16,997 bases of DNA from positions 1-16,997 of the forward strand of contig JAKLKB010000143.1 in the NCBI GenBank assembly GCA_023150835.1, in the 5' to 3' direction. The first letter of the stretch is position 1; each line of letters begins with the position of its first letter. The stretch comes from Myxococcota bacterium. GTDB lineage: Bacteria > Myxococcota_C > UBA6777. A program made the translations under genes and the position numbers. This document shows positions 1-16,558 of this stretch, piece after piece. Below the pieces are notes generated by a model, which worked only from the letters and a program-made list of their open reading frames with translations, was not told the origin of the DNA and made no database searches.

Positions 1-2153
1 CCGTCGTTGTAGCCGATGCGACCGCCAAGGGTGGTGTTTTCGCCGAGCTTGGTGTTTGCGTTGGCTTCGCCGTTGAGTTTGCCGTCGTTGTAGCCGATGC
101 GACCGCCAAGGGTGGTGTTTTCGCCGAGCTTGGTGTTTGCGTTGGCTTCGCCGTTGAGTTTGCCGTCGTTGTAGCCGATGCGACCGCCAAGGGTGGTGTT
201 TTCGCCGAAGCGTCGGGTGATATCGGCTTCGCCGTTGATCTTGCCGTCGTTGTAGCCGATGCGACCGCCAAGGGTGGTGTTTTCGCCGAAGCGTCGGGTG
301 ATATCGGCTTCGCCGTTGATCTTGCCGTCTTGGTATTCGATTTGTGCGTTGGCGCGGGTGTTTTCGTCGATTTGGGAAGACACGCGACCGCCGCCTTGGA
401 TCTGTCCGTCTCGGTAGGCCACGCCCCCTTCGATGGCGGTGCGTTCGTTGATCTGACCGTTGACTTGGGCGCCGCCTTCGATCTTTCCATCGCGGTAAGA
501 GATCTGGCCTTCTGCGGTGGCGTCTTTTCCGAAGCGCGTGCGCACGTTGGCATCGGCTTCTTGGAGTTTGCCATCTTTGAGGCGGAGGCCGCCGTTCAGG
601 TCGGTGTTTTCGCCGAGGCGGGTGCGGCCTTGAGCGTGTGTGGTGAGGTGTCCGTCTCGATCGATGACTGCGCCGCCGCGTAGCTCGCTGTGTTCGTTAA
701 AACGGTGCTGTGCATCGACGCCCAGTTCGGTCATTCGGCCATCTTCAAAACGAACGCGGCCATCGACGTTGGTGCGTTCGTTGAGGGCGGTGTGTGTGTT
801 GAGGGCGACTTGGCTTTTGCCTTCGGGATCGACGCTGATTCGGCCATCCACGGCGGTGCGTTCGCCTACTTTGGTTTTGCCTGTGATATCGCCCGACCAA
901 CGGCCATCTGCGTGTTGAAGATCGGTGTTGATTTGGGTGTTTTTGCCGAGATGCGTTTCGGTTTGGATATCGGCCTTGTGGAGTCGGCCTTCTTTGAGGG
1001 TGACGTCGGCTTCGACCTGTGTGTGATCTGCGATCTTGGTGGCGATATCGCCATCAAGGGTCAAGCGACCGCGACTATCGACGGTGGCGGTTCCTTTGAG
1101 GGTGGTGTCTTCGCCGACTTTGGTGGTGATGCCTGCGCTTGCGCGGCGAAGTTGATCGTTTTCAAGACCCAAGGATGCGGTGAGTTTGGTATCTTTGCTG
1201 ACTTTGCTTGTGACGGAAGCATCGGTGCGGAGGTCGCCTTGTTTGTCGATGCCGATCTGTCCGGTGAGTTTGGTGTGGTCTGCAAGCTTGGTATCGCCAC
1301 CGACGTGGCCGTAGACACGGCCATCGTCAGCGCGGATCTCGCCCTTCAATCGGCTATCTTGGCCGAGGCGAGTTTCGGCTTTGACGTGACCGTTATCGAC
1401 TTGGTTGTCTTTGAGGGCGACCTCGCCTTGGAGGCGGGTTCCTGTGCGTGGGTTGCTTTCGGCTTGGACGGTTCCGTTGAGTTTGCCGTCGTTGAGTTGG
1501 AGGTCGGTGTGGAGGGTGGCGCGTTTGTCGACTTGGGTGTGGGTTTGGAGTTCACCGTTGAGTTTGCCGTCTTGGTAGTGGGCGCGGCCTTCGAGGGTGG
1601 TGTGATCTTTGATTTGGCTTTTTCCATCAAGGCTTGCGTAATTATTTCCGTTGTTGCGTCCGACTTCGGCTTGCCATGTGTGGCGATCGTTGGGTTGGTA
1701 GTTTGCGCGGACGCTGGCGTTGCGTTCTTCGTTGGTTGCGTTGGCGCGGCCTTCGACTTGGAGGCCGTTGATCGGGCGCCATTGGACGTTGCCTTGGCCC
1801 GAAGTGCGTCCTTGCGCATCCATCGCAAGGCGTCCGTTGGCGCTGGTGCGCTCGCTGTCATGGGAGCCTTGGGCGGTTCCGCCTTCAAATCCGCTGCGTT
1901 TGCTGGTGTGTTTGATATCGGCGTAAGGAGTGAAGCGCTCCGCAAGGCTGCGCAGTCGGGAGAAAAAGCCTTGGGAGGGGCGTCGACTGTCTTGGAGGGC
2001 GGTGTTTCCGCCTTGGGTGAAGGAGTCGGCGCGGCGGGGTTCGTGGAGCGCGGGTTGTGAAGGAGAGTGGACGGGGGCGGTGGTGGAGGTCGAGCGTGGC
2101 GCTTGAACCGCAGGGGCGGGGGGCTGTTGTGGTTTTCGGGTGTTGATGTTCAT
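1..2153 (-). CDS. Long beta-hairpin repeat protein, N-terminal 717 residues (C-terminus beyond the left edge)
   Basis: This minus-strand frame is open from an ATG at 2153-2151 to the left edge. An in-frame TAA at 2171-2169 lies just upstream, so this ATG is the most upstream possible start, and an AAGGAG (2165-2170) sits 11 nt before it. Residues 1-85 are Pro/Ala/Ser/Thr-rich, begin MNINTRKPQQPPAPAV and have no Sec signal peptide. From about residue 85, and very regularly from about 190, the protein is a string of 26-28-residue repeats. Each consists of two amphipathic stretches of about 10 residues with alternating small/hydrophobic and polar residues, joined by a DG turn (as in YNDGK or YQDGK) and a G-E-N-T turn. 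About 20 units are recognisable; the sharpest motif is GENTTLGGRIGYNDG. I recognise no family. The pattern suggests stacked or membrane-type beta hairpins (barrel, solenoid or surface fibre), but that is inference. The YARHG gene lies 243 bp upstream on the same strand. Confidence 0.85.
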   Translation of the reverse strand, partial: MNINTRKPQQPPAPAVQAPRSTSTTAPVHSPSQPALHEPRRADSFTQGGNTALQDSRRPSQGFFSRLRSLAERFTPYADIKHTSKRSGFEGGTAQGSHDSERTSANGRLAMDAQGRTSGQGNVQWRPINGLQVEGRANATNEERNASVRANYQPNDRHTWQAEVGRNNGNNYASLDGKSQIKDHTTLEGRAHYQDGKLNGELQTHTQVDKRATLHTDLQLNDGKLNGTVQAESNPRTGTRLQGEVALKDNQVDNGHVKAETRLGQDSRLKGEIRADDGRVYGHVGGDTKLADHTKLTGQIGIDKQGDLRTDASVTSKVSKDTKLTASLGLENDQLRRASAGITTKVGEDTTLKGTATVDSRGRLTLDGDIATKIADHTQVEADVTLKEGRLHKADIQTETHLGKNTQINTDLQHADGRWSGDITGKTKVGERTAVDGRISVDPEGKSQVALNTHTALNERTNVDGRVRFEDGRMTELGVDAQHRFNEHSELRGGAVIDRDGHLTTHAQGRTRLGENTDLNGGLRLKDGKLQEADANVRTRFGKDATAEGQISYRDGKIEGGAQVNGQINERTAIEGGVAYRDGQIQGGGRVSSQIDENTRANAQIEYQDGKINGEADITRRFGENTTLGGRIGYNDGKINGEADITRRFGENTTLGGRIGYNDGKLNGEANANTKLGENTTLGGRIGYNDGKLNGEANANTKLGENTTLGGRIGYND
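3..326 (-). repeat. Four in-frame 81-bp tandem repeats in the beta-hairpin gene
   Basis: Units lie at 3-83, 84-164, 165-245 and 246-326, each coding 27 residues. The two left units are identical in DNA and carry KLNGEANANTKL. The two right units are identical to each other and carry KINGEADITRRF. All four share GENTTLGGRIGYNDG. The array continues past the left edge, because the partial codon at 1-2 still fits the unit. Identity within pairs points to recent tandem duplication. Confidence 0.95.
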
Positions 2154-2396
2154 CTCGGGTGGCTCTCCTTACCGTTCGGATAAAAAGGGGGGTTTTGTGT
2201 GACAAGAAGGTGTCGTTTGTATTTTCGCCGAGATCAGGGGGTGTGTTGCGGATCGCATCACCTCGGCGCAAAGATTTCGGGCGAGGGTACACCAAACAGG
2301 AATAGAATCAAGGGGATTTGGGGCGCTTCTTCACAAGGCCAGTCATGTGTGCAGAGCAGGATTGTTCACGGGCGACGGTGGCGCGATCCAACGCCG
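2154..2396. other. Intergenic gap upstream of the beta-hairpin gene
   Basis: These 243 bp lie between the YARHG gene stop and the repeat-protein start. On the minus strand there is a TTGTCA (2205-2200), 17 bp, then TATCCG (2182-2177). This is a weak promoter candidate that would leave almost no leader, because the Shine-Dalgarno sits at 2165-2170. I see no convincing terminator after the YARHG stop, so read-through from the kinase operon is possible. No supported gene lies here. Confidence 0.4.
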
Positions 2397-3215
2397 TCAC
2401 AAGGCGAGCAGGGCGCGCAGATCGTCGGGTAGGCCAAGGTGAAGATCGCGTGTTCCGTAGTGGATGACTTTCCATCGCGTACAGCCGCGCCCCATCAGAA
2501 GGGCTTTTCCGCCAACGACAGCGAGGCTCGAAAAGGTCGAAGGCAGGGGGGCAGGGGGCTTGGGCGGGAGAGGTGAATACATCTGATCCGAAAGGTGCAG
2601 AACCGCGAAGAGATAGCGGCGGTAGAGGACGATACGGAGTTTCAAAAAGGCGAAGTAAGCGAGGTGATGGTGTTGCCATTGACGGGTTTGATGAAGCAAA
2701 CTGCGGGTGCAAAAGTCTTGGTGCTGGAGAGACAGCGTTGGGGGAAAGGCCGAGGCCGATAGCGGCGGATCTTGCGGGCGGGTTTGGGGAGTCTGTCGCT
2801 CAGCAAGAACAAGCGCTTGGAGGTTGTGGCGTGCGGTGGGGGATAGCGATATGGCGTCTGTGGAGCGAAAGGGCCGATACCAAGGCTGTTTGGAAAAGAA
2901 TTGTTGGAGGTCAGGAGAGCGGAAACGTGCGCCTTCGAGGGCAAACAGCGTGTTGCGTAAGCGGCGTGTGTCGAGCGGAGCGAGGCGAGCAGGCCATGTC
3001 GGATGCAGCGGATGTTGCAGCAAGATCGCTTGCAGCTTGGAGGGGTCGGTGGGTTGTTCAGAGAGAAGATCGCGCAACACATCGGGAAATCGGGGGCCTT
3101 GGTAGGCAGAGGACGGGGTGGCGTAGAGCAAGAGTAGCCCGAACAAAAGCGCCCAAGCCATCGAGAGCTTGCGATGAGCAAAGGGGTGTGTTGAGAGGTC
3201 CGATCGGGGAGGCAT
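2397..3215 (-). CDS. Exported YARHG-domain protein
   Basis: This encodes 272 residues, starting at ATG 3215-3213, 9 bp after the stop of the DUF2786-like gene; there is no clear Shine-Dalgarno, which suggests translational coupling. The N-terminus is a Sec-type signal: a basic n-region, a hydrophobic core WALLFGLLLLY and an ATPSSA cleavage site near residue 37. A second ATG at residue 19 (position 3161) would give a more usual n-region. Residues about 85-135 match the YARHG domain, with LRNTLFALEGARF, then SPDLQQFFSKQPWYRP, then a trailing N-rich helix. YARHG domains are extracellular or periplasmic and of unknown function, often next to peptidase or kinase modules. The remaining C-terminal half (about 150-272) is His/Arg-rich, has a Pro-rich stretch near 215-226 and is unrecognised. 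There is no lipobox cysteine, so it is probably soluble in the periplasm or secreted. As the last gene of the kinase operon it may be an envelope partner of the kinase (inference). Confidence 0.8.
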   Translation of the reverse strand: MPPRSDLSTHPFAHRKLSMAWALLFGLLLLYATPSSAYQGPRFPDVLRDLLSEQPTDPSKLQAILLQHPLHPTWPARLAPLDTRRLRNTLFALEGARFRSPDLQQFFSKQPWYRPFRSTDAISLSPTARHNLQALVLAERQTPQTRPQDPPLSASAFPPTLSLQHQDFCTRSLLHQTRQWQHHHLAYFAFLKLRIVLYRRYLFAVLHLSDQMYSPLPPKPPAPLPSTFSSLAVVGGKALLMGRGCTRWKVIHYGTRDLHLGLPDDLRALLAL

Positions 3216-3797: not shown

Positions 3798-5894
3798 TCA
3801 GACTCCGCCTTCGGGGGCATCGGGGTTTGGGGGAGCATCCATGCGTTCGCCTTCGGAGATATCGATGTTGGGAGAAGCGAGGTGAAGTTCTTCGGCGGCG
3901 AGGATCGCTTCCATCTTGATCGGATCGGCGACCCACGACGGAAGCCCCGTGGTCAAGAGGATCACCGAACGTTCGACAACCCACCGACCGTTGTAGAGGA
4001 TGCAGGGTTGGTCTTCGGGCCAATCCAACGCGCCTGCGAGTTCATCGGCTTGGCGAAGGATCGGACGCACATCGCCACCGTAGACTTGTTCTGCGACGTT
4101 GAGTACGCGCCGAAACACCGTATTCCATGCGTCGTTGGTTTCGCCTGCATCTTCGACCAAGTCAAGCCCCACAGGCAAATTTTCGAGATGGCGCATAAAA
4201 AAATCGATCAGGGACTCTCGGATCACACGGCCATGTTGAGGAGCGATCATCTGCGGGGCGGGGGAGAGTTGGCGGATGCGTTGGATCACACGGGCAAGCG
4301 CTTTGTTCATCGGCATATAGAGCTGGTGAAAGGCTCGCATCCCTGTCCAATCGCTGTCATCGGCGTATAAGCCCACAGCTTCGCGGGCTGTCAAGCCCCC
4401 AAACAGATCGCCTGTGTAAAGCACCCGTGTTTCGGGGTCGTACAACATGACCGCCCCTGCAAAGTGGCAAAATGGCGAAGGGACGGGAACCAAGGTGTGG
4501 CCTGTTTCGATCGCGAAACCACGCGGATATTTGTCAGTCGAAAGAAAGCGCTCGCGTGGCAGATTGTAGTGTTGCACCAGACGCCACGTATCTTCGGAGC
4601 AGATGATGTTGGCGCGTGGTGCGTAGCGTCCAAGCAGCAAGGTGGTCGAAGACGCGACATCGGGATCTTGGTGGTTGATAAACACTGCCGAGATCTTGTC
4701 CATCCCACCGATCAGAGAGGACACTTTGGCTTGTACGGTTGCGAAATCTTGGCTTGAGCCCGGGTCGATCAACAGATTGAACTGAATCTTTTGCCCATTT
4801 TTGTTGCGCCCCCGAAAGATCCGCAAGTAGGGGTTGGCAAAAAAGATCGACTTGGAAGGCCGTGAACCCACCCAATAACTCGACGGCGCGATCTCGACCG
4901 CAAACAGATGTTCGTTGGTTGTGGTGGCTGTCTTGGGGGCGGGTTTGGGCTTGGTTGCGTAAGGCGACAAGGCTTCCCAAAAAGCTTTCATGCTTTCGTA
5001 GCGTTGTTGGGGATCTTTGGCGAGTGCGCGAAACAAGACTTGTTCAAAGCCGTTGTCAAACGGAGCCGATGGATGTTGAGGGAGGGGGCGCGGCGTTTGC
5101 CAGACATGCGCTCGTAGCAGCGATACGACATCTTCTTCGCTGCGTTTCTTCGGCATATCGAACGGCAAGTAGCCCGTAAACATCTCATAGAGCATGACGC
5201 CTAAAGCGTAGATATCGCAACGGTGGGTCACTTGTTCGCCCAAACATTGTTCAGGGGACATGTATTCGGGTGTTCCGAGCGCTCCCACAGTGCGTTTTGT
5301 GCTGTCTTGGATACTACGAGCGATCCCAAAATCGAGCAATTTGACGTAGAGTGGGTCGCTTTCGTGCTGAATTAAAAAGACATTGTCTGGCTTGAGATCG
5401 CGGTGGATGATCCCCTGCTGGTGTGCGGCGTGTAACGCTCGGCAAAGCTGTTCGGCGATATGGAATACTTCTTCTCTTTTCGGTAGCTTATTCTTTTTCA
5501 TCCACAACGACAGATCTTGTCCTTGTAGGTATTCCATTACAAAGTAGTAGCCCAAGTTTTCTTCATGACCAAAATCGTCAAAGATTCTGACGATATGGTT
5601 GTTTTTTTCTGAAAGAACAGCGGTCACTTGGACTTCTTGCTCAAAGCGCGATAAGGATTCAGGCTTTTTCTGCTGGTGGCTTTTCAGTAGCTTGATGGCG
5701 CGCCGAGGGTTGTGTTGCAGGCCGATATGCCTCGCCGCATACACGACACCGAAGCCGCCTTCGCTTAGTACATGCTCTAGCCGATATTTTCCTGCGATCA
5801 GCTTTTGGGGAAAAGAGCATTGTGGGCAAAAGTCTTGATCTTTGATGATCTCTTTTTGGCAATTTGAGCAGAAGTTCTCTTGTTGAGCGCTCAT
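3798..5894 (-). CDS. Zinc-ribbon Ser/Thr protein kinase fused to an ODP-type metallo-beta-lactamase-fold domain
   Basis: This encodes 698 residues; ATG 5894-5892 with AAGGA about 12 nt upstream. Residues 9-26 form a zinc ribbon (Cys 9, 12, 23, 26). The kinase domain spans about 37-312: glycine loop SEGGFG (44-49), AIK Lys68, HRDLKPDN (164-171, catalytic Asp166), DFG (188-190) and GTPEYMSPEQ (207-216), so it should be active. After a Pro/Lys/Thr linker (311-327), residues about 330-580 resemble the MBL fold of flavodiiron and ODP proteins: NHQDPD (His408, Asp410, Asp412), His477 in FCHFAG, Asp496 in TGDLFGG and His554 in PQHG. These supply six of the seven usual diiron ligands; the second His of the first motif is Val413. 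No flavodoxin domain follows. Residues about 585-670 are an unrecognised Trp-containing tail. There is no membrane helix, so it is cytoplasmic. It is the first gene of the kinase/DUF2786/YARHG operon. A kinase whose activity is set by O2, NO or redox at the diiron centre is a reasonable inference. Confidence 0.92.
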   Translation of the reverse strand: MSAQQENFCSNCQKEIIKDQDFCPQCSFPQKLIAGKYRLEHVLSEGGFGVVYAARHIGLQHNPRRAIKLLKSHQQKKPESLSRFEQEVQVTAVLSEKNNHIVRIFDDFGHEENLGYYFVMEYLQGQDLSLWMKKNKLPKREEVFHIAEQLCRALHAAHQQGIIHRDLKPDNVFLIQHESDPLYVKLLDFGIARSIQDSTKRTVGALGTPEYMSPEQCLGEQVTHRCDIYALGVMLYEMFTGYLPFDMPKKRSEEDVVSLLRAHVWQTPRPLPQHPSAPFDNGFEQVLFRALAKDPQQRYESMKAFWEALSPYATKPKPAPKTATTTNEHLFAVEIAPSSYWVGSRPSKSIFFANPYLRIFRGRNKNGQKIQFNLLIDPGSSQDFATVQAKVSSLIGGMDKISAVFINHQDPDVASSTTLLLGRYAPRANIICSEDTWRLVQHYNLPRERFLSTDKYPRGFAIETGHTLVPVPSPFCHFAGAVMLYDPETRVLYTGDLFGGLTAREAVGLYADDSDWTGMRAFHQLYMPMNKALARVIQRIRQLSPAPQMIAPQHGRVIRESLIDFFMRHLENLPVGLDLVEDAGETNDAWNTVFRRVLNVAEQVYGGDVRPILRQADELAGALDWPEDQPCILYNGRWVVERSVILLTTGLPSWVADPIKMEAILAAEELHLASPNIDISEGERMDAPPNPDAPEGGV

Positions 5895-8127: not shown

Positions 8128-10254
8128 TCACGTTTGTTCGTTGATCTTTTTTAAGATCGATTCACTACAGCCACAACGCGGCTGTCCACAAGGAGCCACC
8201 TCCTTGTTCATCGCAGACAGCGCGATCTCCGCGTTGGATTGGGGGGGGTGGAGCTTCGCATGGCTGTGTTCGTGGTGGTCGTGTGGATGGGTATGTTCGT
8301 GGTGGTGGTCGTGTGGATGGGCATGTTCGTGGTGGTCGTGTGGATGGGCATGTTCGTGGTGGTCGTGTGGATGGGCATGTTCGTGGTGGTGGTGTTCGTG
8401 GATGTGGTGTTCATGTTCATGTTCGTGAGCATGGTGTTCGTGAGTGTGGTGTTCATGTTCATGTTCGTGAGCATGGTGGGCGTGTTCGTGGTGGTTGTGG
8501 GAGTCATGGGTCGGGGGGGCATACGCAGGGATGAGTTGGCCGAGCAAGAAGCGAGGGCCATTGCGCAACAGAGTGCTGAGTGTGATCAGGCCGAGAATCC
8601 CGAGGCAGACGATGCTGAGCATGGAGTGGTTGTGATGGTGATGGAGATGGATCGGCGGGGGAGGGACGTGGAACAGCAAGTCGACGCTCCAACCAAGAAG
8701 ACAAGAGACCCCGATCATGGAGGCCGCGAACGCGAAGGCGACACGTTTGTTGTGAAGGGCGCTAAGGACGCCAAATGTCGTGAGGTTGGTGGCGGGGCCT
8801 GTGAGCAAGAACGCGATGGCAGCGCCGGGAGAAAGCCCCTTGGCGATCAACACGGCAACAAAGGGCGTTGCGCCCGAAGCGCAAACATACACGGGCATAC
8901 CGATCAAGGCGGCGAGCGGGACTTGTATCGCAAAGGGCAGCGTGGCGAGCGCGCTGGTTGGGAGCAGAGGTTGGAGCGCGGCGGCTAGAAAAAGACCTGC
9001 TAAGATCCAAGGCAATGTATGATCTGCATTTTCACCAAATCCGTAAGAGAAGCCTTTGTGGAGTTGGCTTTTGAGCGAGGGAGTGGGGGCATCGGGAGTG
9101 GAAGAGGCCGTCGTAAGGGGGGAAGGGGTAGGGATCAAGCGGCTTACGAGCAAGGACACGCAGACCGCAGCGATGGCAGCGGCGGCGAGGCGCAGCCATG
9201 TCATTTTTGCACCGAGCAGCGGGATGGATAGCAAGATCGCATCGATCCCCAGTTCAGGAGTGGCGATCAAAAAGGCCATCCCTGCGGTCGCTGGTGCGCC
9301 TGCTCGCACAAGGCTTTGATACAGCGGAACCACACCACACGAGCAGATCGGCAAGGGCAGACCAAACAACATCCCCCGAGCACTTTGCGATAACGCAGAG
9401 CCACGCCCCAACCAAGACACCGCCGCAGGACGCAAAAAGGCAAACATCAGGCTTGCGCCGATGTAGGCCAAGAGCAACGCAGGTGCGCTTTCAAGCGCGA
9501 TCTGCCAAAAGGCTTGCCCCATCGAGTTTCCTGCGTGGTGCGCGTGTGCGGTGTTGTGTTCGAGCGAGATGCCCCATAACAAACCGATCCCCAACAATGC
9601 GCCGAATCCGCTCCATACAGGCGATACATCCGAAGTTTTGGGTTCGTGCTGTGGATGCTCGAACAGGATATGCAAGAGGCTTCCTGCCACGAAGGCTTGG
9701 AACCACGCCATCATCTGCAAAGGAAGGCTCTGATGAAGTGGCTTGCCTGCAAGATAACCCACCGTCGTGGCAGCGGCGTTAAGGAAGATCACCCACCAAG
9801 CGATCCGTGCGCCTTTGCGTGGAATCAACAACCATGCGATCGCTAAACCCACGGGGATACGGTGAAGTACGACAGCCAGCGCCAGAAGCTTTTCTTCTGT
9901 GTGGGCGTGTCCTGCTTCAGGCAAAGCAAGCGCGACACCATCCAATACGGCATGGACCCCCAAACCAAGCAGGGCCAACATCCCCAACCATCCGAGGCGA
10001 TGGGGATTTGCGGGCGCGACTTTGCTCCAAAATCGATCCGCCCCAAGCGGCAACAAGATCCCCAGCAACGCAGCGAAGATCACCCCCCCTCCTGCGATGT
10101 GGAGGCTGTGTGGTAACAAGTGCAGCAACACCAGTCCCACTACAGACACCAAAAGAAATCCATCCAAAACAGCCAAACTACGGGCTGCTCGTCGGATGTA
10201 AGGATACAAAAAGGGGCCAAAAAACAGCGGAAGCAGGCTCATCCAGAAAAGCAT
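8128..10254 (-). CDS. Fused metal transporter: ZIP-like domain, ArsP/SO_0444-like permease and poly-His tail
   Basis: This encodes 708 residues from ATG 10254-10252; AAAGGA is about 13 nt upstream. The frame is open further upstream to 10383, but that extension is hydrophilic and runs through the divergent promoter region. Residues 1-200 are multi-pass and ZIP-like, with HAVLDG (101-106) and HRIPVGLA (131-138), the latter resembling the H-N-I-P-E-G-L-A helix of GufA-type ZIPs but with Val for the metal-ligand Glu. Residues about 247-530 match the DUF318 permease family (ArsP; SO_0444-type Cu/Zn efflux), with LPICSCGVVP (301-310), ATPELG (331-336) and VCASGATPF (457-465), separated by a Pro/Ser/Thr linker (373-398). 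HLHHHHNH (536-543) and one more helix (545-563) precede a tail of about 80 residues (583-665) made mostly of His with Glu, Asp and Ala. The protein ends CGQPRCGC (689-696). Export of Zn, Cu or another soft metal, with the tail as buffer or sensor, is inferred. No metal regulator is adjacent. Confidence 0.85.
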   Translation of the reverse strand: MLFWMSLLPLFFGPFLYPYIRRAARSLAVLDGFLLVSVVGLVLLHLLPHSLHIAGGGVIFAALLGILLPLGADRFWSKVAPANPHRLGWLGMLALLGLGVHAVLDGVALALPEAGHAHTEEKLLALAVVLHRIPVGLAIAWLLIPRKGARIAWWVIFLNAAATTVGYLAGKPLHQSLPLQMMAWFQAFVAGSLLHILFEHPQHEPKTSDVSPVWSGFGALLGIGLLWGISLEHNTAHAHHAGNSMGQAFWQIALESAPALLLAYIGASLMFAFLRPAAVSWLGRGSALSQSARGMLFGLPLPICSCGVVPLYQSLVRAGAPATAGMAFLIATPELGIDAILLSIPLLGAKMTWLRLAAAAIAAVCVSLLVSRLIPTPSPLTTASSTPDAPTPSLKSQLHKGFSYGFGENADHTLPWILAGLFLAAALQPLLPTSALATLPFAIQVPLAALIGMPVYVCASGATPFVAVLIAKGLSPGAAIAFLLTGPATNLTTFGVLSALHNKRVAFAFAASMIGVSCLLGWSVDLLFHVPPPPIHLHHHHNHSMLSIVCLGILGLITLSTLLRNGPRFLLGQLIPAYAPPTHDSHNHHEHAHHAHEHEHEHHTHEHHAHEHEHEHHIHEHHHHEHAHPHDHHEHAHPHDHHEHAHPHDHHHEHTHPHDHHEHSHAKLHPPQSNAEIALSAMNKEVAPCGQPRCGCSESILKKINEQT
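8260..8508 (-). repeat. Histidine-codon repeat tract with 27-bp tandem units
   Basis: This encodes residues 583-665 of the transporter. The cleanest units, each about 27 bp and coding HEHAHPHDH-like nonapeptides, begin on the plus strand at 8283, 8313, 8340 and 8367; the first spacing is 30 bp because of one extra His codon. The rightward part is a looser HEHEHHTHEHHAH pattern, itself duplicated at about 595-606 and 609-620. The plus strand is strongly G/T-rich here. Confidence 0.9.
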
Positions 10255-10318
10255 GGGGATTTTGTCGTCCTTTGGAGGGAGTCTTGGTTTTGGCGCGAAC
10301 AGAACACCTTGCAACACT

Positions 10319-10347
10319 TTGCTTTTTGTGCGCGCCTTTGCTATAGC
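10319..10347 (+). promoter_or_regulatory. Weak promoter candidate for the giant kinase gene
   Basis: In the 160-bp gap between the divergent transporter and kinase starts, TTGCTT (10319-10324), a 17-bp spacer and TATAGC (10342-10347) form a plausible but weak promoter with a leader of about 60 nt. The -10 lies within the palindrome GCTATAGC (10340-10347), so the same bases could serve as a -10 on the minus strand for the transporter, though I see no matching -35 there. Confidence 0.35.
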
Positions 10348-10414
10348 TCGGTCTTGTAGCATGGAGTGTGCGTCTTTGCGCAACGAAATCTATCTATCTG
10401 AGGGTGCTTTTTCG

Positions 10415-13400
10415 ATGAACCAAGCCTGTCCACAATGTGCGTTTCCTTTCGCTGAGGGGCAACAAGACGCCTTCTCCTTTTGTCCCAAGTGCAGCTTTCC
10501 CTTGATGCGTGTCGCGGGAAAATATCGCCTTACACGCTTGCTTGGCGAAGGGTCGTTTGGGCGGGTGTATCTTGCGCGTCACATGAACTTGCGTCACAAA
10601 CCTGAGCGCGTCATCAAAGTCATGCGCTCCGATGTCTTGCGCCAACACGGTATGGAAGAGCGCTTTTGGCGTGAGGTACAATTGACGGCTGCGCTCTCTG
10701 AGCAAAACGCGCATGTTGTCCGTGTATACGACGATTTTGGCGAAGAAGAAGGACTCGGATTTTACTATGTGATGGAGTATCTTCGCGGACGTTCCTTGAA
10801 AGAAGTGTGTCGGGCTTGCGGCCCACTTCCGACTCCACTGGTTTGGCATATCTTTCAACAGCTTTGTGAAGCCGCTACGTTGGCTCACAACGAAGGCATC
10901 ATCCACCGCGATCTCAAACCCCAAAATATCTACCTGATCCCGCGAGGTCGTGACCCTTACTTTGTCAAGATCTTTGACTTTGGGATCGCCAAGTCGCTTG
11001 TTGAAGCCAAACAAGCCGATTGGACACGCGGAGCGCTCGGAACACCCGCGTATATGGCTCCCGAACAATGCAGCAATCGCCAAATCGACCAACGCACCGA
11101 TCTTTACGCGATGGCTGTGATCCTTTACGAGATGCTTTCTGGACGGACGCCCTTTCTTTTTGATGGACTTGCCCAAGGCACTTCCCCCGATCCGATGGCG
11201 ATCTTGATCGCTCACATGACGCAATCACCCGTCCCGCTGACCAAACAAGCCCCTTGGCTGGCGATCGATCCCGCCTTGGATCAAGTCATCCTCAAAGCCC
11301 TTTCAAAAGATCCTGCCGAGCGTTTCGAGAGTGTCGAGTCTTTTTGGCGAGCGATTCTTCGCTTTCTTCCGCCCGATACCTTCCAACAAACTTTGCCGAC
11401 ACCTCACGAACTGCTTGGCCCCGAAGCCCCTGTCCTCTCTTCAGATGGCTGGTCGGCAATCGATTCGGTCGAAGAATCCGACATCTTGACTCCTGTTCCT
11501 TCTTCTTCGGCTCTTTGGAAAACACCCCCTGAGTCGGCGGAAAAACCCAACGAACACGCCGATGCCTCCGATGAATACGCCTTTCCTTCTTCCGCCTTCG
11601 CTGAAAAGAACATCGGTCGCTCCATGATGTGGCCCGAACGCACGCTGGATCTCGGTGGAATCCTGACCCTGCGCAAAGAGCAGCAGACCCTTGCGCTTGG
11701 CGAAGGTGATCTTCTCGAAGAGGTCGGACTTTTTTCTGAACAAGAAGAAGTCAGACTTTTCTCTGAGCAAGAAGATGTCGTAGACCTGTTAACAGAAGAT
11801 CATACCCCCGATCCACGGCGTTTGGTCGAAACCCTCAACTTGCGTGTTCCCACCGAAACAGCACTCGCCGCCGACGCCTTGGATGGAGCCTCGCACACTG
11901 CCGATGCTTCGCAAAAAGCCCAGACTGCCCTCGATGTCTCGCCTTTTACACAACCTTTGCCTCGCCCTGCGTTTGTGCCGATCTGGAGCGATGCACTTCC
12001 CCAGCCTCATCCCTCTGAGCCGCCTGCTCCCTCTCTCCAAGAACCCACCCGTGCCTACGGAACTTTTCAAGACGAAGCATCCTTCGCGGCGTCACCTTTT
12101 CAAAGCGAACTATCCGCCGAAGCCGCGCCTTATCAGAACGAAAAAAGCACCGTCGAAGTCTCGCCTTATCAGAACGAAAAAAACACCGTCGATGCCTCCT
12201 TCTTCCCAAACGAGAAAACTACGGAATATCCGACGTTTTCTTCTGGAAAGATGCTTGATCCACTTTCCACACAACCGCAAACAAACCTTGTTTCTCCGCT
12301 TTTTCAAGAAGAACAACAAACTCTCGAAGCCAACGCTTTTCAACAGGCCCCATCCTCCGACACCTCTCGTCCTGAAACGTTTTCTCCTTCCCGATCTCCC
12401 GTCGAATCTATCAAGATACCGCTCTTTCTTGCCGAATCATCGCCTTCTTTGTCTTCGCTTCCTCAGGAACGCACCCTTGAACTGCAAAACAAAAAGCGTG
12501 CGATCTTCTATGAAACGGACAACAGCGATACCGAACTTTCCGAACGTAAAAAGCGCAAGACCCTCCACGAACAGCCTTTTTCAATGCCCCCCGTCCCTCC
12601 TGTCTCGTTGACCTTGCCGAAACTGCCTGAAACAGAGCCGTTGGCTTCTTTTGCTTCTGTTCCTTCCACGCCTTCGGCTGCTTCGGCTGTTCCTTCTTTC
12701 GCGCCTTCGGCTGTTCCTTCTTTCGCGACTTCGGCTGCTTCGGCTGTTCCTTCTTCCTCCGCTGCTCTTTCTATGCGATCCACTTCTCCGCAAGAACTAC
12801 CCGACTTCTCCGAAGACAGCGAACCTCCTGTGCTTCTGGCCGCAGAAGATGAACGGCCTCATTTCTCCGAAGAAAACGAGCCTCCTGTGCTGTTGGCCGC
12901 AGAAGACGAAGTCTCCGAAGCAGCCGAACTTGATGACGCTCCTGTGCTGTTGGCCGCAGAAGACGAAGTCTCCGAAGCAGCCGAACTCGATGACGCTCCT
13001 GTGCTGTTGGCCGCAGAAGACGAAGTCTCCGAAGCAGCCGAACTCGATGACGCTCCTGTGCTGTTGGCCGCAGAAGACGAAGTCTCCGAAGCAGCCGAAC
13101 TTGATGACGCCCCTGTGTTGCTGGCAGAAGAAGACCCGTTGCTCTTGGACGAGCAACATCGTTCCCGACCCAACGCACCCACTCAGACAGAGGAATCCCC
13201 TGTTCTCTTGGAAGAATCGCCTCCCGTGCGTTTGGATCCCTCACCCGCAAACAAACCAACGCTCTCGCCTCACGAAGCCGTCACCGTCGCGATCCCCAAC
13301 CCCCTCCACAAAAAAACCTCGCCGCCCACAGAATCTTTTTCCGCAAACTCTCCTTCGCCTTCTGCTGTTTCGTCTTTCTTGCCTCCTTCCTCTTCTCCTA

Positions 13401-16400
13401 CCGCCCGACCCACCGTGCCTTTCGCTCCACCACCTCCCCCGTTTTCTGCGCCTTCTCTCTTTTCGCCAGCCGCTGCTTCGCAGATCAGAGGAACATTGGG
13501 ACTCGCCAAACCTTCGGATAATGCGATACCTTCGCCCTCTTTCTCCGGCATCTTTACAGATCCGCCCGCTCCACCCGACAGCGGGTTTCTTCGCGAACTT
13601 GACCGATTGCTTGATGGCTTGGGAACTCATACACGCAAAGACAAAGCCGAACCCAGCGCCGAATTGATCCTTGGAACAGATGATCTGTTTGAAAGCAGCG
13701 AAGCCGCAGAGAAACCAACCCCAAAACCGCCCGAACCCAGCGTCGAACTGATCCTTGGCACCGATGACTTGGTCGAACACGTTCAAACGACCGAACACCC
13801 TGCTGTTCAACCACCCGAACCCAGCGTTGAGTGGGTTCTCGGGCAAAACGATCTGATCGAACCAACCCCGCAAACGGACGAACATCCGCCAGTTGCGAAG
13901 ACATCTGCGCAAACGGACGAACATCCGCCAGTTGCGAAGACATCTGCGCAAACGGACGAACATCCGCCAGTTGCGAAGACATCTGCGCAAACGGACGAAC
14001 ATCCGCCTGTTGCGAGCGACGCGATCCCACAAGCGACCCACGAGATGCCTGTTCTTTTGGACGAGGCCGAGCCGACACAAGATTGGCAAGACACCCTTGA
14101 TAGCCGCGAATTGGACGCAGTATCGCAAGGCCGTCTCTCGCAGATCCTCGATGAAACACGCGAACCAGCCGCTCTTGAGACGACAACGGAACCTCCATCA
14201 GCCGTTGTTGGAGCGGTAACGGAACCCAAAAAAACCGCGCCCTTGTTTGCTTTGCCGAAACAAGACGCTCGATCTGCGTTTTCTCCGCCCAAAAATACGC
14301 CGCTTGCGCTCTTGATGTCTAATGAAGACGATGATGATCTGCCTCCGCCTCCGACCTCCGAAGTGGATATCTCTCGATTCGCATCCGCAGACGAACCCGA
14401 TGCAGAGGCGATCCGCAAAGCGTTGGTGGGGACGTTGCCTCCGAATACTCCGCTTACCACGTCTGCCTTCCAAGCGCTTTTTGAAGAAGCCCAAGCCGCA
14501 AAAAACAAAGCCGACACCGCAACAAAGTCCGATACGCCCACCTTTTCGGCAGAGCAGACGCGCCACACTCTACAAGATGATGACGCTGTGATGGCCCCCA
14601 AGTTGGCGGTGTTGCTTGAACAGGTGCTGCCCGAGGAGATCGACGAGGCGGATGCTCTCGAAGGCTTCGATGCTCTCGAAGTCTCTGATGCTTCAAAAGA
14701 AGAGGCGCTTCTTCTACTTTCTACACCTGCAAAACACGAGGCCGAAAAACAACAGCCTACCGACCAAGATCCCGCATCGCTCGCGCTTTCCGAGAACGAA
14801 GACGAAGAGGACGAACCCGCCGCATTTTCTGCGCCTCCTTCCTCTTCTGCCCGTCGCCTTCGTGCTGATGCTTCCCTCGCAAAACCCGGTGCTTTCGCTT
14901 CTTTGCTTGACGAAGCCCACAAAACCGAAGCGTTGATCGAGGCCACCTTCGGCCCTTCGACAAAGGCCCCGTCCTCCTCGTCCTCCGATACTCCTCGTAG
15001 ATCAGACGAAGAACCCCTCTCTCCCACAGCGGCGACGGCTGCATCGGCGAGTGATGCGACGATCGCGCACAAAACTCCTGTACCATCCGAACAAAAGCCC
15101 CCATCCGTTCGCTCGGCCTTTTCTATCCAAGCCGTCCTGTTGACGGACGAAGAAGCCAAAGAACTCCAAATCTCCACAGATCCGACAGAAGAAGAGCAGA
15201 TCGCTGCACGCTTGTTGAAGGACGAAAGCCAAGACGGCCTTTTGACCGAAGAGTCACTTCCTTCTTCACTTCCTGCCCGACGTGCCGAGACTTCTGGCGT
15301 GGATCGCAAAGCGCCCTTGCGACTCTCTCCTACTTCTCTCTTGGTCGATGAAAACACGCTATTTGAAGCCGAAGATGCTGCGTTGCGACGACGCCATCTC
15401 GTGATCGGCGGCACCTTGGTGCTTTCGGTCTTGATGATCTTCGTTGCGCTTGGAACCTTGCTTGGCTGGTTTTCCTCCAAACCGACTTCTTCTCTTCAGC
15501 ATCCCTCCGCACAGGCAGGCAAAACAAACGAACCCCCTGCGCGAAACGTCCTTGCTTCCGCCTCCAAAAACGATCTGCCTCTAGATATCCGAGACGTACC
15601 TCCATCCCGCTCTTCTGAAACGCCCGATATAGGTTCTTCTCAGCCTTTGCGCTCCCATCCTCCTCTCTCTCCAACGGCTCGCACTGCACCTGTTGCTGTT
15701 CCTCCTGCTGTCACTTCTTCGCCAACGGCGCTTTCTGTCCAAAAACAACCGTTGTCTCTTCCATTCACACCACCCATGCCTCCCACGCCACCGGCGATTC
15801 CGCCGCTACCTGCGGATCCAAACGCGCTGCCTGCGGTTTCCAACGAACCTCCAACCCCGCGCATCGAAACCATCAAACCCCCACAACCTTCGTCGCGTGC
15901 TCCTGCCTTGCCCTCGCCTGCTTTGCCGCGTGGGCGACCCCGCAAACGCCCAAAAGTTGCAACGGCTACCTCTTCAAATGACCGCTGCCCCGAAGGGATG
16001 GCGTGGATCGCTGCGGGGGCTTTTCCGATGGGCAGCGCCGTGAGTGATCCCATGCACTTCTTTGGCGAAAAAGCGTTGGTGCGCACCTCTACTTCGGGCT
16101 TTTGTATCGACCGCTACGAAGCCCCCGGCAAAGGTGAGATGCCCATCCGCGATATCTCTTGGAGTGACGCCAAAGCGCATTGCGCCACAAAGGGCAAACG
16201 CTTGTGTTCGGAGATCGAGTGGGAACGCGCTTGCAAAGGTTCTTCTGAGCGGCGTTTTCCTTATGGAAACACTTTCCAACCCAACCGATGCAACACCCGT
16301 GATGCCAAAGGCCGCAACCGCAGCATCCGTCGCGGAGGCTCCATGCCCCGATGCAAAAGCCCCTTTGGAGTCTTCGATCTCAGCGGCAACGTCGCCGAAT

Positions 16401-16558
16401 GGACCTCCTCGCCTTTCTTGCGCAAGGGCTGGCGCATCATTCGTGGCGGCTCCTTCAATCGGCCCGATTGGGATGTCCGTTGCGCCAGTCGTGGCGGGCT
16501 CCCCCCCAACTCTCGCAAATCCAGCGTCGGCTTCCGCTGCTGTTCTTCCCCAAAGTGA
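10415..16558 (+). CDS. Giant zinc-ribbon Ser/Thr protein kinase with membrane anchor and extracytoplasmic FGE-sulfatase-like domain
   Basis: This encodes 2047 residues from ATG 10415, preceded by a modest GAGGG (10400-10404). The frame is open back to 10253, but the zinc ribbon should begin the protein as in the paralogue at 3798-5894. Cys 5, 8, 23 and 26 form the ribbon. The kinase spans about 37-320: GEGSFG (44-49), Lys68, HRDLKPQN (164-171), DFG (188-190), GTPAYMAPEQ (209-218); all catalytic residues are present. Residues about 330-1655 are a disordered, acidic, Pro/Ser/Ala-rich linker with several tandem repeats (listed separately) and recurring P-V-L-L-x-E/D and ILGTDDL motifs. A membrane helix lies at 1662-1686 after ALRRRH, so the kinase is inside. 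A Pro-rich spacer (about 1690-1850) leads to an FGE-sulfatase/SUMF1-like domain (about 1858-2043) with PEGMAWIAAGAFPMGS, CSEIEWERACKG, DLSGNVAEW, RIIRGGSF and VGFRCC. The catalytic cysteine positions after GGSF hold other residues, so a binding or sensing role is likelier than formylglycine synthesis. It is probably a receptor kinase; ligand and substrates are unknown. Confidence 0.92.
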   Translation: MNQACPQCAFPFAEGQQDAFSFCPKCSFPLMRVAGKYRLTRLLGEGSFGRVYLARHMNLRHKPERVIKVMRSDVLRQHGMEERFWREVQLTAALSEQNAHVVRVYDDFGEEEGLGFYYVMEYLRGRSLKEVCRACGPLPTPLVWHIFQQLCEAATLAHNEGIIHRDLKPQNIYLIPRGRDPYFVKIFDFGIAKSLVEAKQADWTRGALGTPAYMAPEQCSNRQIDQRTDLYAMAVILYEMLSGRTPFLFDGLAQGTSPDPMAILIAHMTQSPVPLTKQAPWLAIDPALDQVILKALSKDPAERFESVESFWRAILRFLPPDTFQQTLPTPHELLGPEAPVLSSDGWSAIDSVEESDILTPVPSSSALWKTPPESAEKPNEHADASDEYAFPSSAFAEKNIGRSMMWPERTLDLGGILTLRKEQQTLALGEGDLLEEVGLFSEQEEVRLFSEQEDVVDLLTEDHTPDPRRLVETLNLRVPTETALAADALDGASHTADASQKAQTALDVSPFTQPLPRPAFVPIWSDALPQPHPSEPPAPSLQEPTRAYGTFQDEASFAASPFQSELSAEAAPYQNEKSTVEVSPYQNEKNTVDASFFPNEKTTEYPTFSSGKMLDPLSTQPQTNLVSPLFQEEQQTLEANAFQQAPSSDTSRPETFSPSRSPVESIKIPLFLAESSPSLSSLPQERTLELQNKKRAIFYETDNSDTELSERKKRKTLHEQPFSMPPVPPVSLTLPKLPETEPLASFASVPSTPSAASAVPSFAPSAVPSFATSAASAVPSSSAALSMRSTSPQELPDFSEDSEPPVLLAAEDERPHFSEENEPPVLLAAEDEVSEAAELDDAPVLLAAEDEVSEAAELDDAPVLLAAEDEVSEAAELDDAPVLLAAEDEVSEAAELDDAPVLLAEEDPLLLDEQHRSRPNAPTQTEESPVLLEESPPVRLDPSPANKPTLSPHEAVTVAIPNPLHKKTSPPTESFSANSPSPSAVSSFLPPSSSPTARPTVPFAPPPPPFSAPSLFSPAAASQIRGTLGLAKPSDNAIPSPSFSGIFTDPPAPPDSGFLRELDRLLDGLGTHTRKDKAEPSAELILGTDDLFESSEAAEKPTPKPPEPSVELILGTDDLVEHVQTTEHPAVQPPEPSVEWVLGQNDLIEPTPQTDEHPPVAKTSAQTDEHPPVAKTSAQTDEHPPVAKTSAQTDEHPPVASDAIPQATHEMPVLLDEAEPTQDWQDTLDSRELDAVSQGRLSQILDETREPAALETTTEPPSAVVGAVTEPKKTAPLFALPKQDARSAFSPPKNTPLALLMSNEDDDDLPPPPTSEVDISRFASADEPDAEAIRKALVGTLPPNTPLTTSAFQALFEEAQAAKNKADTATKSDTPTFSAEQTRHTLQDDDAVMAPKLAVLLEQVLPEEIDEADALEGFDALEVSDASKEEALLLLSTPAKHEAEKQQPTDQDPASLALSENEDEEDEPAAFSAPPSSSARRLRADASLAKPGAFASLLDEAHKTEALIEATFGPSTKAPSSSSSDTPRRSDEEPLSPTAATAASASDATIAHKTPVPSEQKPPSVRSAFSIQAVLLTDEEAKELQISTDPTEEEQIAARLLKDESQDGLLTEESLPSSLPARRAETSGVDRKAPLRLSPTSLLVDENTLFEAEDAALRRRHLVIGGTLVLSVLMIFVALGTLLGWFSSKPTSSLQHPSAQAGKTNEPPARNVLASASKNDLPLDIRDVPPSRSSETPDIGSSQPLRSHPPLSPTARTAPVAVPPAVTSSPTALSVQKQPLSLPFTPPMPPTPPAIPPLPADPNALPAVSNEPPTPRIETIKPPQPSSRAPALPSPALPRGRPRKRPKVATATSSNDRCPEGMAWIAAGAFPMGSAVSDPMHFFGEKALVRTSTSGFCIDRYEAPGKGEMPIRDISWSDAKAHCATKGKRLCSEIEWERACKGSSERRFPYGNTFQPNRCNTRDAKGRNRSIRRGGSMPRCKSPFGVFDLSGNVAEWTSSPFLRKGWRIIRGGSFNRPDWDVRCASRGGLPPNSRKSSVGFRCCSSPK
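12128..12199 (+). repeat. Two 36-bp repeats in the kinase linker
   Basis: Units at 12128-12163 and 12164-12199 code PYQNEKSTVEVS and PYQNEKNTVDAS. Weaker relatives flank them (PFQSEL before, FFPNEKTTEYPT after), so this is a decayed 12-residue periodicity. Confidence 0.8.
12824..13135 (+). repeat. 57-bp in-frame tandem repeats in the kinase linker
   Basis: Five 57-bp units start at 12824, 12881, 12938, 12995 and 13052, with a truncated sixth from 13109. The last four full units are nearly identical, differing mainly at the Leu-Asp codons and the first residue, and code the 19-residue motif PVLLAAEDEVSEAAELDD plus one Pro/Ala. The first unit is diverged (PVLLAAEDERPHFSEENE). They correspond to about residues 804-907 and are strongly acidic. 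Confidence 0.95.
13871..14016 (+). repeat. 39-bp in-frame tandem repeats in the kinase linker
   Basis: Three identical 39-bp units at 13871-13909, 13910-13948 and 13949-13987 code QTDEHPPVAKTSA. A fourth, truncated and slightly changed unit starts at 13988. They lie just after three degenerate repeats of the PSVELILGTDDL type (about 13645-13860). Residues are about 1153-1201. Confidence 0.95.

What the first reader, a model, noticed from the sequence alone, without database searches (positions are those of the whole stretch)
1..2153. Unrecognised protein built from about 20 or more tandem beta-hairpin repeats
Translating the minus strand gives an uninterrupted 717-residue start of a protein with regular 26-28-residue units. 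Each is two alternating-polarity strands joined by a DG turn and a G-E-N-T turn. The start is fixed by an upstream in-frame stop, and the N-terminus is Pro/Ala-rich with no Sec signal. Outer-membrane barrels normally need a signal peptide, and curli-type or solenoid repeats look different. A non-Sec surface, predation or secretion-needle protein, or a giant barrel or fibre, are all open. No known family comes to mind.
Basis: partly seen in the sequence, partly recalled or inferred. Interest (0 to 1): 0.75.

Follow-up and report, generated by a model that had tools for sequence, protein, structure and literature searches.

The report
Non-Sec myxobacterial beta-sheet repeat protein
The window holds the first half of a large, undescribed bacterial protein: about 22 repeated hairpins predicted to form one long membrane-protein-like sheet, which in relatives is followed by a conserved domain and calcium-binding repeats and is encoded next to a helper (TPR) gene, so it is probably a membrane-active protein kept soluble by its own chaperone.

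Summary
Window 3-2153(-) encodes a 717-aa N-terminal fragment with about 22 units of 27 aa; the contig ends inside near-identical repeats. AlphaFold2 on six units gives a confident antiparallel beta-meander (pLDDT 92), and Foldseek/VIA match it to arcs of outer-membrane barrels. There is no Sec signal. Sister genomes supply the missing half: a conserved amphipathic beta domain ('A2'), then 5-10 EF-hand/dockerin-like Ca2+ loops between amphipathic helices, ending in an aromatic tail. A2 defines an unnamed family without a Pfam or NCBIfam model, present in all 5 held genomes of its phylum and 89 of 195 of a second one. Thirty-four of 49 members with readable flanks sit next to a cognate TPR gene; A2 and TPR similarities correlate (rho 0.75). 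The family co-occurs with a type III-type export gate (SctV), confounded by phylogeny. Best reading: a membrane-active, non-Sec protein kept soluble by a dedicated TPR chaperone and probably exported. The anatomy is shown; chaperoning, membrane insertion and export are inferred. Main rival: an intracellular apolipoprotein- or perilipin-like lipid coat. The Pfam bactofilin hit is judged a repeat artefact.

The parts
3..2153 (-). 717-aa N-terminal fragment of the repeat protein; runs off the contig
2163..2170 (-). Shine-Dalgarno AAGGAGAG, 8 nt before the ATG
   Evidence: sequence read
1974..2153 (-). residues 1-60: Pro/Ala/Thr/Ser/Gln-rich, basic, no hydrophobic core; low AF2 confidence (disordered)
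1878..1973 (-). residues 61-92 (GFFSRLRSLAERFTPYADIKHTSKRSGFEGGT region), predicted short helix 61-73; counterpart SFWGRLRDASKNFKTYAECKRTSERHGFGG in the G003 homologue
1566..1763 (-). residues 131-196: degenerate N-terminal hairpins
3..1565 (-). residues 197-717: about 19 clear 27-aa hairpin units; one face L/I/V/A/G/T/Y, other face K/N/E/D/R
3..323 (-). residues 611-717: four near-identical units (KxNGEAxxxxxxGENTTLGGRIGYNDG) where the assembly breaks

Best explanation
The ORF is the N-terminal half of a roughly 1,300-1,700-residue protein that does not use the Sec route and probably acts outside the cytoplasm. SHOWN in sequence or prediction: a polar/Pro-rich N-terminus without Sec signal; a long array of 27-aa hairpins predicted to form one continuous amphipathic antiparallel sheet like an arc of a wide outer-membrane barrel; and, from orthologues in sister genomes, a conserved amphipathic-beta domain (A2), then 5-10 EF-hand/dockerin-type Ca2+ loops between amphipathic helices, ending in a short aromatic tail; a TPR gene without signal peptide next door that has diversified together with it. 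INFERRED: the TPR protein is the client's dedicated chaperone, masking amphipathic regions and/or the C-terminal tail so the protein stays soluble in the cytoplasm; the protein is then exported by a non-Sec machine (most likely the type III-type/SctV apparatus these bacteria carry); outside, Ca2+ folds the C-terminal region and the beta array inserts into, or coats, a membrane (predation or contact functions are plausible). The confidence refers to the whole chain; the anatomy alone I would put near 0.9.
For: Repeats and strand amphipathicity; AF2 pLDDT 92 meander whose Foldseek/VIA matches are outer-membrane and mitochondrial barrels, e.g. OmpU 7e-5, LptD Z 12.2, 2.9 A over 159 residues. Complete homologue G003:C79, 1311 aa; C-terminal half G001:C181, 918 aa. 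EF-hand_1 3.8e-22 and Dockerin_1 3.1e-11; 10 and 5 EF loops; helical moment 1.27 vs 0.63-0.65 shuffled. A2 in 5/5 genomes of the own phylum and 89/195 of a second phylum. TPR gene in 34 of 49 loci with readable flanks by script (33 downstream, 1 upstream; earlier per-locus tables); A2/TPR similarity Spearman 0.75 over 561 non-independent pairs, and matching partners for most paralogues checked. Aromatic C-terminus: 16/32 non-redundant members end exactly in F/W vs 1.2 expected, maximum 6 in 2000 resamplings. One member carries a LysM domain (1.6e-15) without Sec, arguing for action outside the cytoplasm. The own genome has SctV above the TIGR01399 cut-off (803 vs 692 bits); SctV above cut-off in 81/89 A2+ vs 32/106 A2- genomes; outside the dominant family 8/12 vs 19/87, p=0.003.
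Against: No physical linkage between A2 loci and SctV was seen. Co-occurrence is phylogenetically confounded, and many SctV+ families lack A2. The Myxococcus T3SS* lacks secretin, needle and translocon (PMC12075869). TPR partners match several TPR families below cut-off (MamA, PilW, Tom70 as well as LcrH/SycD), so sequence does not single out a type III chaperone. About 13-15 loci have no TPR neighbour, some instead a kinase-like gene. EF-hands also occur in cytosolic bacterial proteins. Barrel closure was not shown: the full-length model is poor (pLDDT 57).
Confidence: 0.4

Rival explanations
1. Intracellular lipid-surface protein: an apolipoprotein/perilipin-like coat of lipid bodies or storage granules. 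The one-sided amphipathic beta sheet (as in ApoB) and the amphipathic helices lie on a lipid core; the TPR protein helps target or assemble it.
For: Full-length model matches ApoB100 (2e-5, low-confidence model); helices match ApoLp-III 6e-4, under its cut-off, Apolipoprotein 8e-7 and Perilipin 2e-6 in single family members; no Sec signal; myxobacteria form lipid bodies (own knowledge).
Against: Amphipathic helix models match many low-complexity Ala-rich proteins; a LysM-bearing member and many Ca2+ loops suggest the outside of the cell; the barrel matches come from the confident model.
Confidence: 0.25
2. Soluble Ca2+-dependent scaffold or adhesin exported by another non-Sec route (type I-like, C-terminal tail as signal), with the hairpin array as a long rigid arm and no membrane insertion.
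For: Ca2+ loops, repeat length variation, conserved C-terminal tail; type I substrates use C-terminal signals and Ca2+-driven folding (own knowledge).
Against: No RTX nonapeptides and no ABC/MFP genes recognised by eye next to the loci read; a hydrophobic face along the whole sheet is hard to keep in water.
Confidence: 0.15
3. Ordinary Sec/BAM outer-membrane barrel with a mis-called start.
For: Fold matches.
Against: In-frame stop 5 codons upstream, good Shine-Dalgarno at the ATG, same start region in the sister genome, no signal peptide in the G003 homologue, EF-hand/helical C-terminus instead of a terminal beta-signal strand.
Confidence: 0.04
4. Bactofilin-type cytoskeletal polymer.
For: PF04519 35.8 bits, cut-off 27.9.
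Against: Predicted fold is antiparallel meander, not parallel beta-helix; the G003 homologue has no such hit; five partial matches, as periodic sequence gives.
Confidence: 0.02

Closest known systems
Outer-membrane beta-barrels with wide curvature (LptD, FimD usher, TonB receptors, OmpU)
   Same: Antiparallel meander, strands of 10-13 residues, alternating polarity; LptD 2.9 A over 159 residues
   Different: No Sec signal, no long extracellular loops, about 44 strands by repetition, closure not shown, EF-hand/helical C-terminus, TPR partner
ApoB100-type amphipathic beta sheets and perilipin/apolipoprotein helices
   Same: One-sided amphipathic sheet plus amphipathic helices
   Different: No sequence relationship to ApoB found; bacterial; Ca2+ loops; TPR operon
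Type III translocators with class II TPR chaperones (SycD/LcrH)
   Same: Non-Sec client presumed membrane-active, adjacent TPR gene, SctV in the genome
   Different: TPR partner is about 390-460 aa and below the TIGR02552 cut-off; client unrelated in sequence; not seen near SctV
Dockerin/EF-hand repeat proteins
   Same: DxNxDGxVxxxD loops, Dockerin_1 3.1e-11
   Different: Loops separated by long amphipathic helices; no cellulosomal context seen
Bactofilins (PF04519)
   Same: Nominal profile match in the repeats
   Different: Predicted fold differs

Membership tests
Sec/BAM outer-membrane beta-barrel | N-terminal Sec signal peptide | tested here: not met
   No hydrophobic segment in first 60 aa of window protein or G003 homologue; start fixed by upstream stop
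Sec/BAM outer-membrane beta-barrel | Amphipathic antiparallel beta-meander of 10-13 residue strands | tested here: met
   AF2 pLDDT 92; strand moment about 12 s.d. above shuffles; barrel matches
Sec/BAM outer-membrane beta-barrel | Closed barrel | tested here: inconclusive
   The six-unit model covers only a segment; full-length model pLDDT 57
Bactofilin | Parallel beta-helix core | tested here: not met
   Antiparallel meander predicted, although the profile match alone is above cut-off
EF-hand/dockerin repeat protein (C-terminal half, sister genome) | DxDxDG-type Ca2+ loops matching EF-hand/dockerin models | tested here: met
   EF-hand_1 3.8e-22, Dockerin_1 3.1e-11; 10 loops; this half is not in the window's contig
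Type III secretion client with class II TPR chaperone | Cognate TPR gene adjacent | tested here: met
   34 of 49 readable loci by script, correlated divergence rho 0.75; for the window gene itself shown only in orthologues
Type III secretion client with class II TPR chaperone | TPR partner belongs to the SycD/LcrH family | tested here: not met
   TIGR02552 29.6-73.5 bits vs cut-off 104.8
Type III secretion client with class II TPR chaperone | Secreted in an SctV-dependent way | not testable with these tools
   Only co-occurrence
ApoB/perilipin-like lipid coat | Binds the surface of lipid droplets | not testable with these tools
   Only weak profile and fold matches
MORN, YD/RHS, YPDG and other hairpin repeats | Match to the family profile above cut-off | tested here: not met
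   None reported by Pfam at E 10; NCBIfam YPDG_rpt 24.9 bits, under its cut-off of 40

The most novel reading that the evidence does not exclude
A previously undescribed class of non-Sec, TPR-chaperoned, Ca2+-binding membrane-active proteins of myxobacteria, whose largest members build a single-chain beta sheet of more than 40 strands, and which are substrates of the myxobacterial type III-like (T3SS*) apparatus.
Probability: 0.2. Interest if true: 0.9.

Novelty: new variant of a known kind. Interest (0 to 1): 0.6.

Why it matters
It points to a widespread, unnamed protein family (A2 domain plus cognate TPR gene plus aromatic tail) in myxobacteria, many of them predators. If its members are exported clients, they are testable candidates for effectors of the Myxococcus needleless T3SS*, which the paper read here discusses without naming any (PMC12075869). 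If they coat lipids instead, they would be a bacterial counterpart of ApoB/perilipin. The repeat array would also be an unusually long amphipathic beta-meander in one chain.

Tried and rejected
Bactofilin: rejected, see text. DUF2860, DNAJC11 barrel, TorF/OmpO porin hits: below cut-off, read as generic amphipathic-strand resemblance. Recovering the own C-terminus: own-genome DNA and protein searches found no continuation, only paralogues. Plasmid and phage collections: no match. PHROGs: none for the N-terminal half. Repeat profile in 195 genomes of a second phylum: none at 1e-5, without a positive control in that search. PDB by sequence: nothing convincing for repeats or A2. Viral structure library: nothing below 1e-3; weak porin and MORN matches. 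Folding the A2 domain, the EF-hand half or the TPR pair was not tried: those loci come from sources the structure tool does not admit. T3SS link by gene position: not supported in the genomes with both coordinates. Papers: none found describing the family.

Full report
OBSERVATION. The minus-strand ORF 3-2153 is real: ATG with AAGGAGAG 8 nt upstream, in-frame stop five codons before it, 717 codons open to the contig end. The sister genome G001 has the same gene, 96% identical, with the same upstream context; the titled record of that genome is 'Myxococcota bacterium isolate KLAP109'. The repeat period is 27 aa. A repeat HMM scores units at up to 46 bits; 200 shuffles reach 5.5. About 19 units are clear, about three more are degenerate. 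The last units are near identical, which explains why the assemblies of this genome and of G001 both break there.

FOLD. One face of each strand is L/I/V/A/G/T with Tyr near the DG turn, the other K/N/E/D/R; the strand moment is 1.52 vs 0.81 +/- 0.06. AF2 on residues 557-717, with an alignment made only of the window's and L017's own repeats, gives 12 antiparallel strands, pLDDT 92, pTM 0.70. Because the alignment was built from internal repeats, a regular structure is favoured by construction, but hairpin order agrees with the independent amphipathic pattern. Foldseek's best PDB matches are barrels (OmpU, porins, VDAC, Tom40, FimD), and VIA gives LptD at Z 12.2, 2.9 A over 159 residues. Most other high-Z rows have rmsd of 6-13 A, so the curvature fits a wide barrel or an open sheet. 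The full-length model is weak (pLDDT 57; about 32 strands between 131 and 568, mostly at 55-84) and cannot decide closure. A strand moment as high as that of the repeats (1.63 vs 0.83 +/- 0.10) is also found in the A2 domain.

THE MISSING HALF. G003:C79 (same family, other genus) holds a complete homologue of 1311 aa; G001:C181 begins inside the repeats and runs 918 aa to a stop. Both continue: last hairpins, a Thr-rich linker, domain A2 (44% identical over 305 columns), EF-hand/dockerin loops (5 and 10 by pattern) separated by amphipathic helices (moment 1.27 vs 0.63-0.65), and the ends ...RAQGAVSRLVRFFGG and ...RARGAVSRLGNFFGF. That C449 and C181 of G001 are one gene is inferred from matching repeat sequence and from the G003 gene, not from a joined read.

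A FAMILY. A2 occurs in all five held genomes of the phylum, 2-5 copies each, in 11 of 386 mixed genomes (the weakest hits may be unrelated), and in 89 of 195 genomes of a second phylum. Members keep A2 and the C-terminal region and vary in front of it; repeat arrays of this kind were seen only in G000, G001 and G003. Pfam and NCBIfam have no model for A2, and none accepted for the repeats. Across 40 members Pfam finds only EF-hands, one LysM, one Apolipoprotein and one Perilipin match.

TWO CONSERVED LINKS. (a) A TPR gene on the same strand lies next to 34 of 49 members whose flanks could be read (33 downstream, 1 upstream, typically within 100 bp, stop-to-stop frames); two more, L081 and L083, show a TPR-like frame by eye that the script's distance rule missed. 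TPR and A2 similarity correlate (Spearman 0.75, 561 non-independent pairs), and paralogues keep their own partner types across genomes, e.g. L018/L020, L034/L079, L077/L078, L073/L098. The four TPR partners examined have no obvious signal peptide, although start sites are uncertain. (b) The C-terminus is aromatic: 16 of 32 non-redundant members end exactly in F or W and 24 of 32 have one in the last four residues, expected 1.2 and 4.6.

EXPORT. The genome has an SctV above the NCBIfam cut-off. Above-cut-off SctV occurs in 81 of 89 A2+ and 32 of 106 A2- genomes; excluding the dominant family, 8 of 12 and 19 of 87 (p = 0.003). Relatedness was not corrected for, and many SctV+ families lack A2, so I count this as consistent, not as proof. 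No A2 gene was found beside SctV. In Myxococcus the T3SS* is needed for prey lysis and lacks secretin, needle and translocon (PMC12075869); this is context, not evidence for this protein. The LysM-bearing member without a Sec signal (L122) and the Ca2+ loops favour action outside the cytoplasm.

MECHANISM. I commit to a membrane-active non-Sec client with a dedicated TPR chaperone, exported and folded by Ca2+ outside (0.4 for the chain). The strongest rival is a lipid-surface protein of ApoB/perilipin type inside the cell (0.25). Both share the core claim that the amphipathic sheet faces lipid; they differ in location, which one fractionation experiment would settle.

NOVELTY. The parts resemble known kinds (barrel-like sheet, EF-hands, TPR chaperone); the combination and the A2 family match nothing in the libraries tried. 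I rate it a new variant, with 'categorically new' left open.

Noticed in passing
L118:1157-3523 (G000:C25): 788-aa ORF fusing NadC (TIGR00078, 325 bits) to the C-terminal cytoplasmic domain of FlhA/SctV (PF00771 residues 357-655, 138 bits) without the membrane part; similar C-domain-only hits in G001, G002 and G004. That domain is the chaperone-substrate docking site in type III export (own knowledge).
   Followed up: partly
window 3798-5894 (-): Ser/Thr kinase (162 bits) fused to an ODP-type metallo-beta-lactamase domain (174 bits), with a weak zinc ribbon at the N-terminus.
   Followed up: no
window 8128-10383 (-): ZIP-like and ArsP_1 permease domains in one protein with a long His/Glu-rich repeat stretch, suggesting metal binding.
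   Followed up: no
window 10253-16558 (+): 2101-aa ORF: Ser/Thr kinase, long low-complexity middle with tandem repeats, C-terminal FGE-sulfatase domain.
   Followed up: no
window 690-2060 (+): 456-aa open frame antisense to the repeat protein; probably a by-product of its codon usage, not treated as a gene.
   Followed up: partly
window 2397-3215 (-): Gene just upstream encodes a YARHG-domain protein with a hydrophobic N-terminal segment; not seen beside the homologue in G003.
   Followed up: no
L119:4530-8150 (G561, 1.1 Mb genome): A 1206-aa A2 member ending in ...IKAVFSGW in a very small genome that also has SctV, without a TPR neighbour.
   Followed up: no
L091, L093, L100 (genus g361): A2 members followed not by TPR but by a sensor-kinase-like ORF on the same strand, named by eye only.
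   Followed up: no
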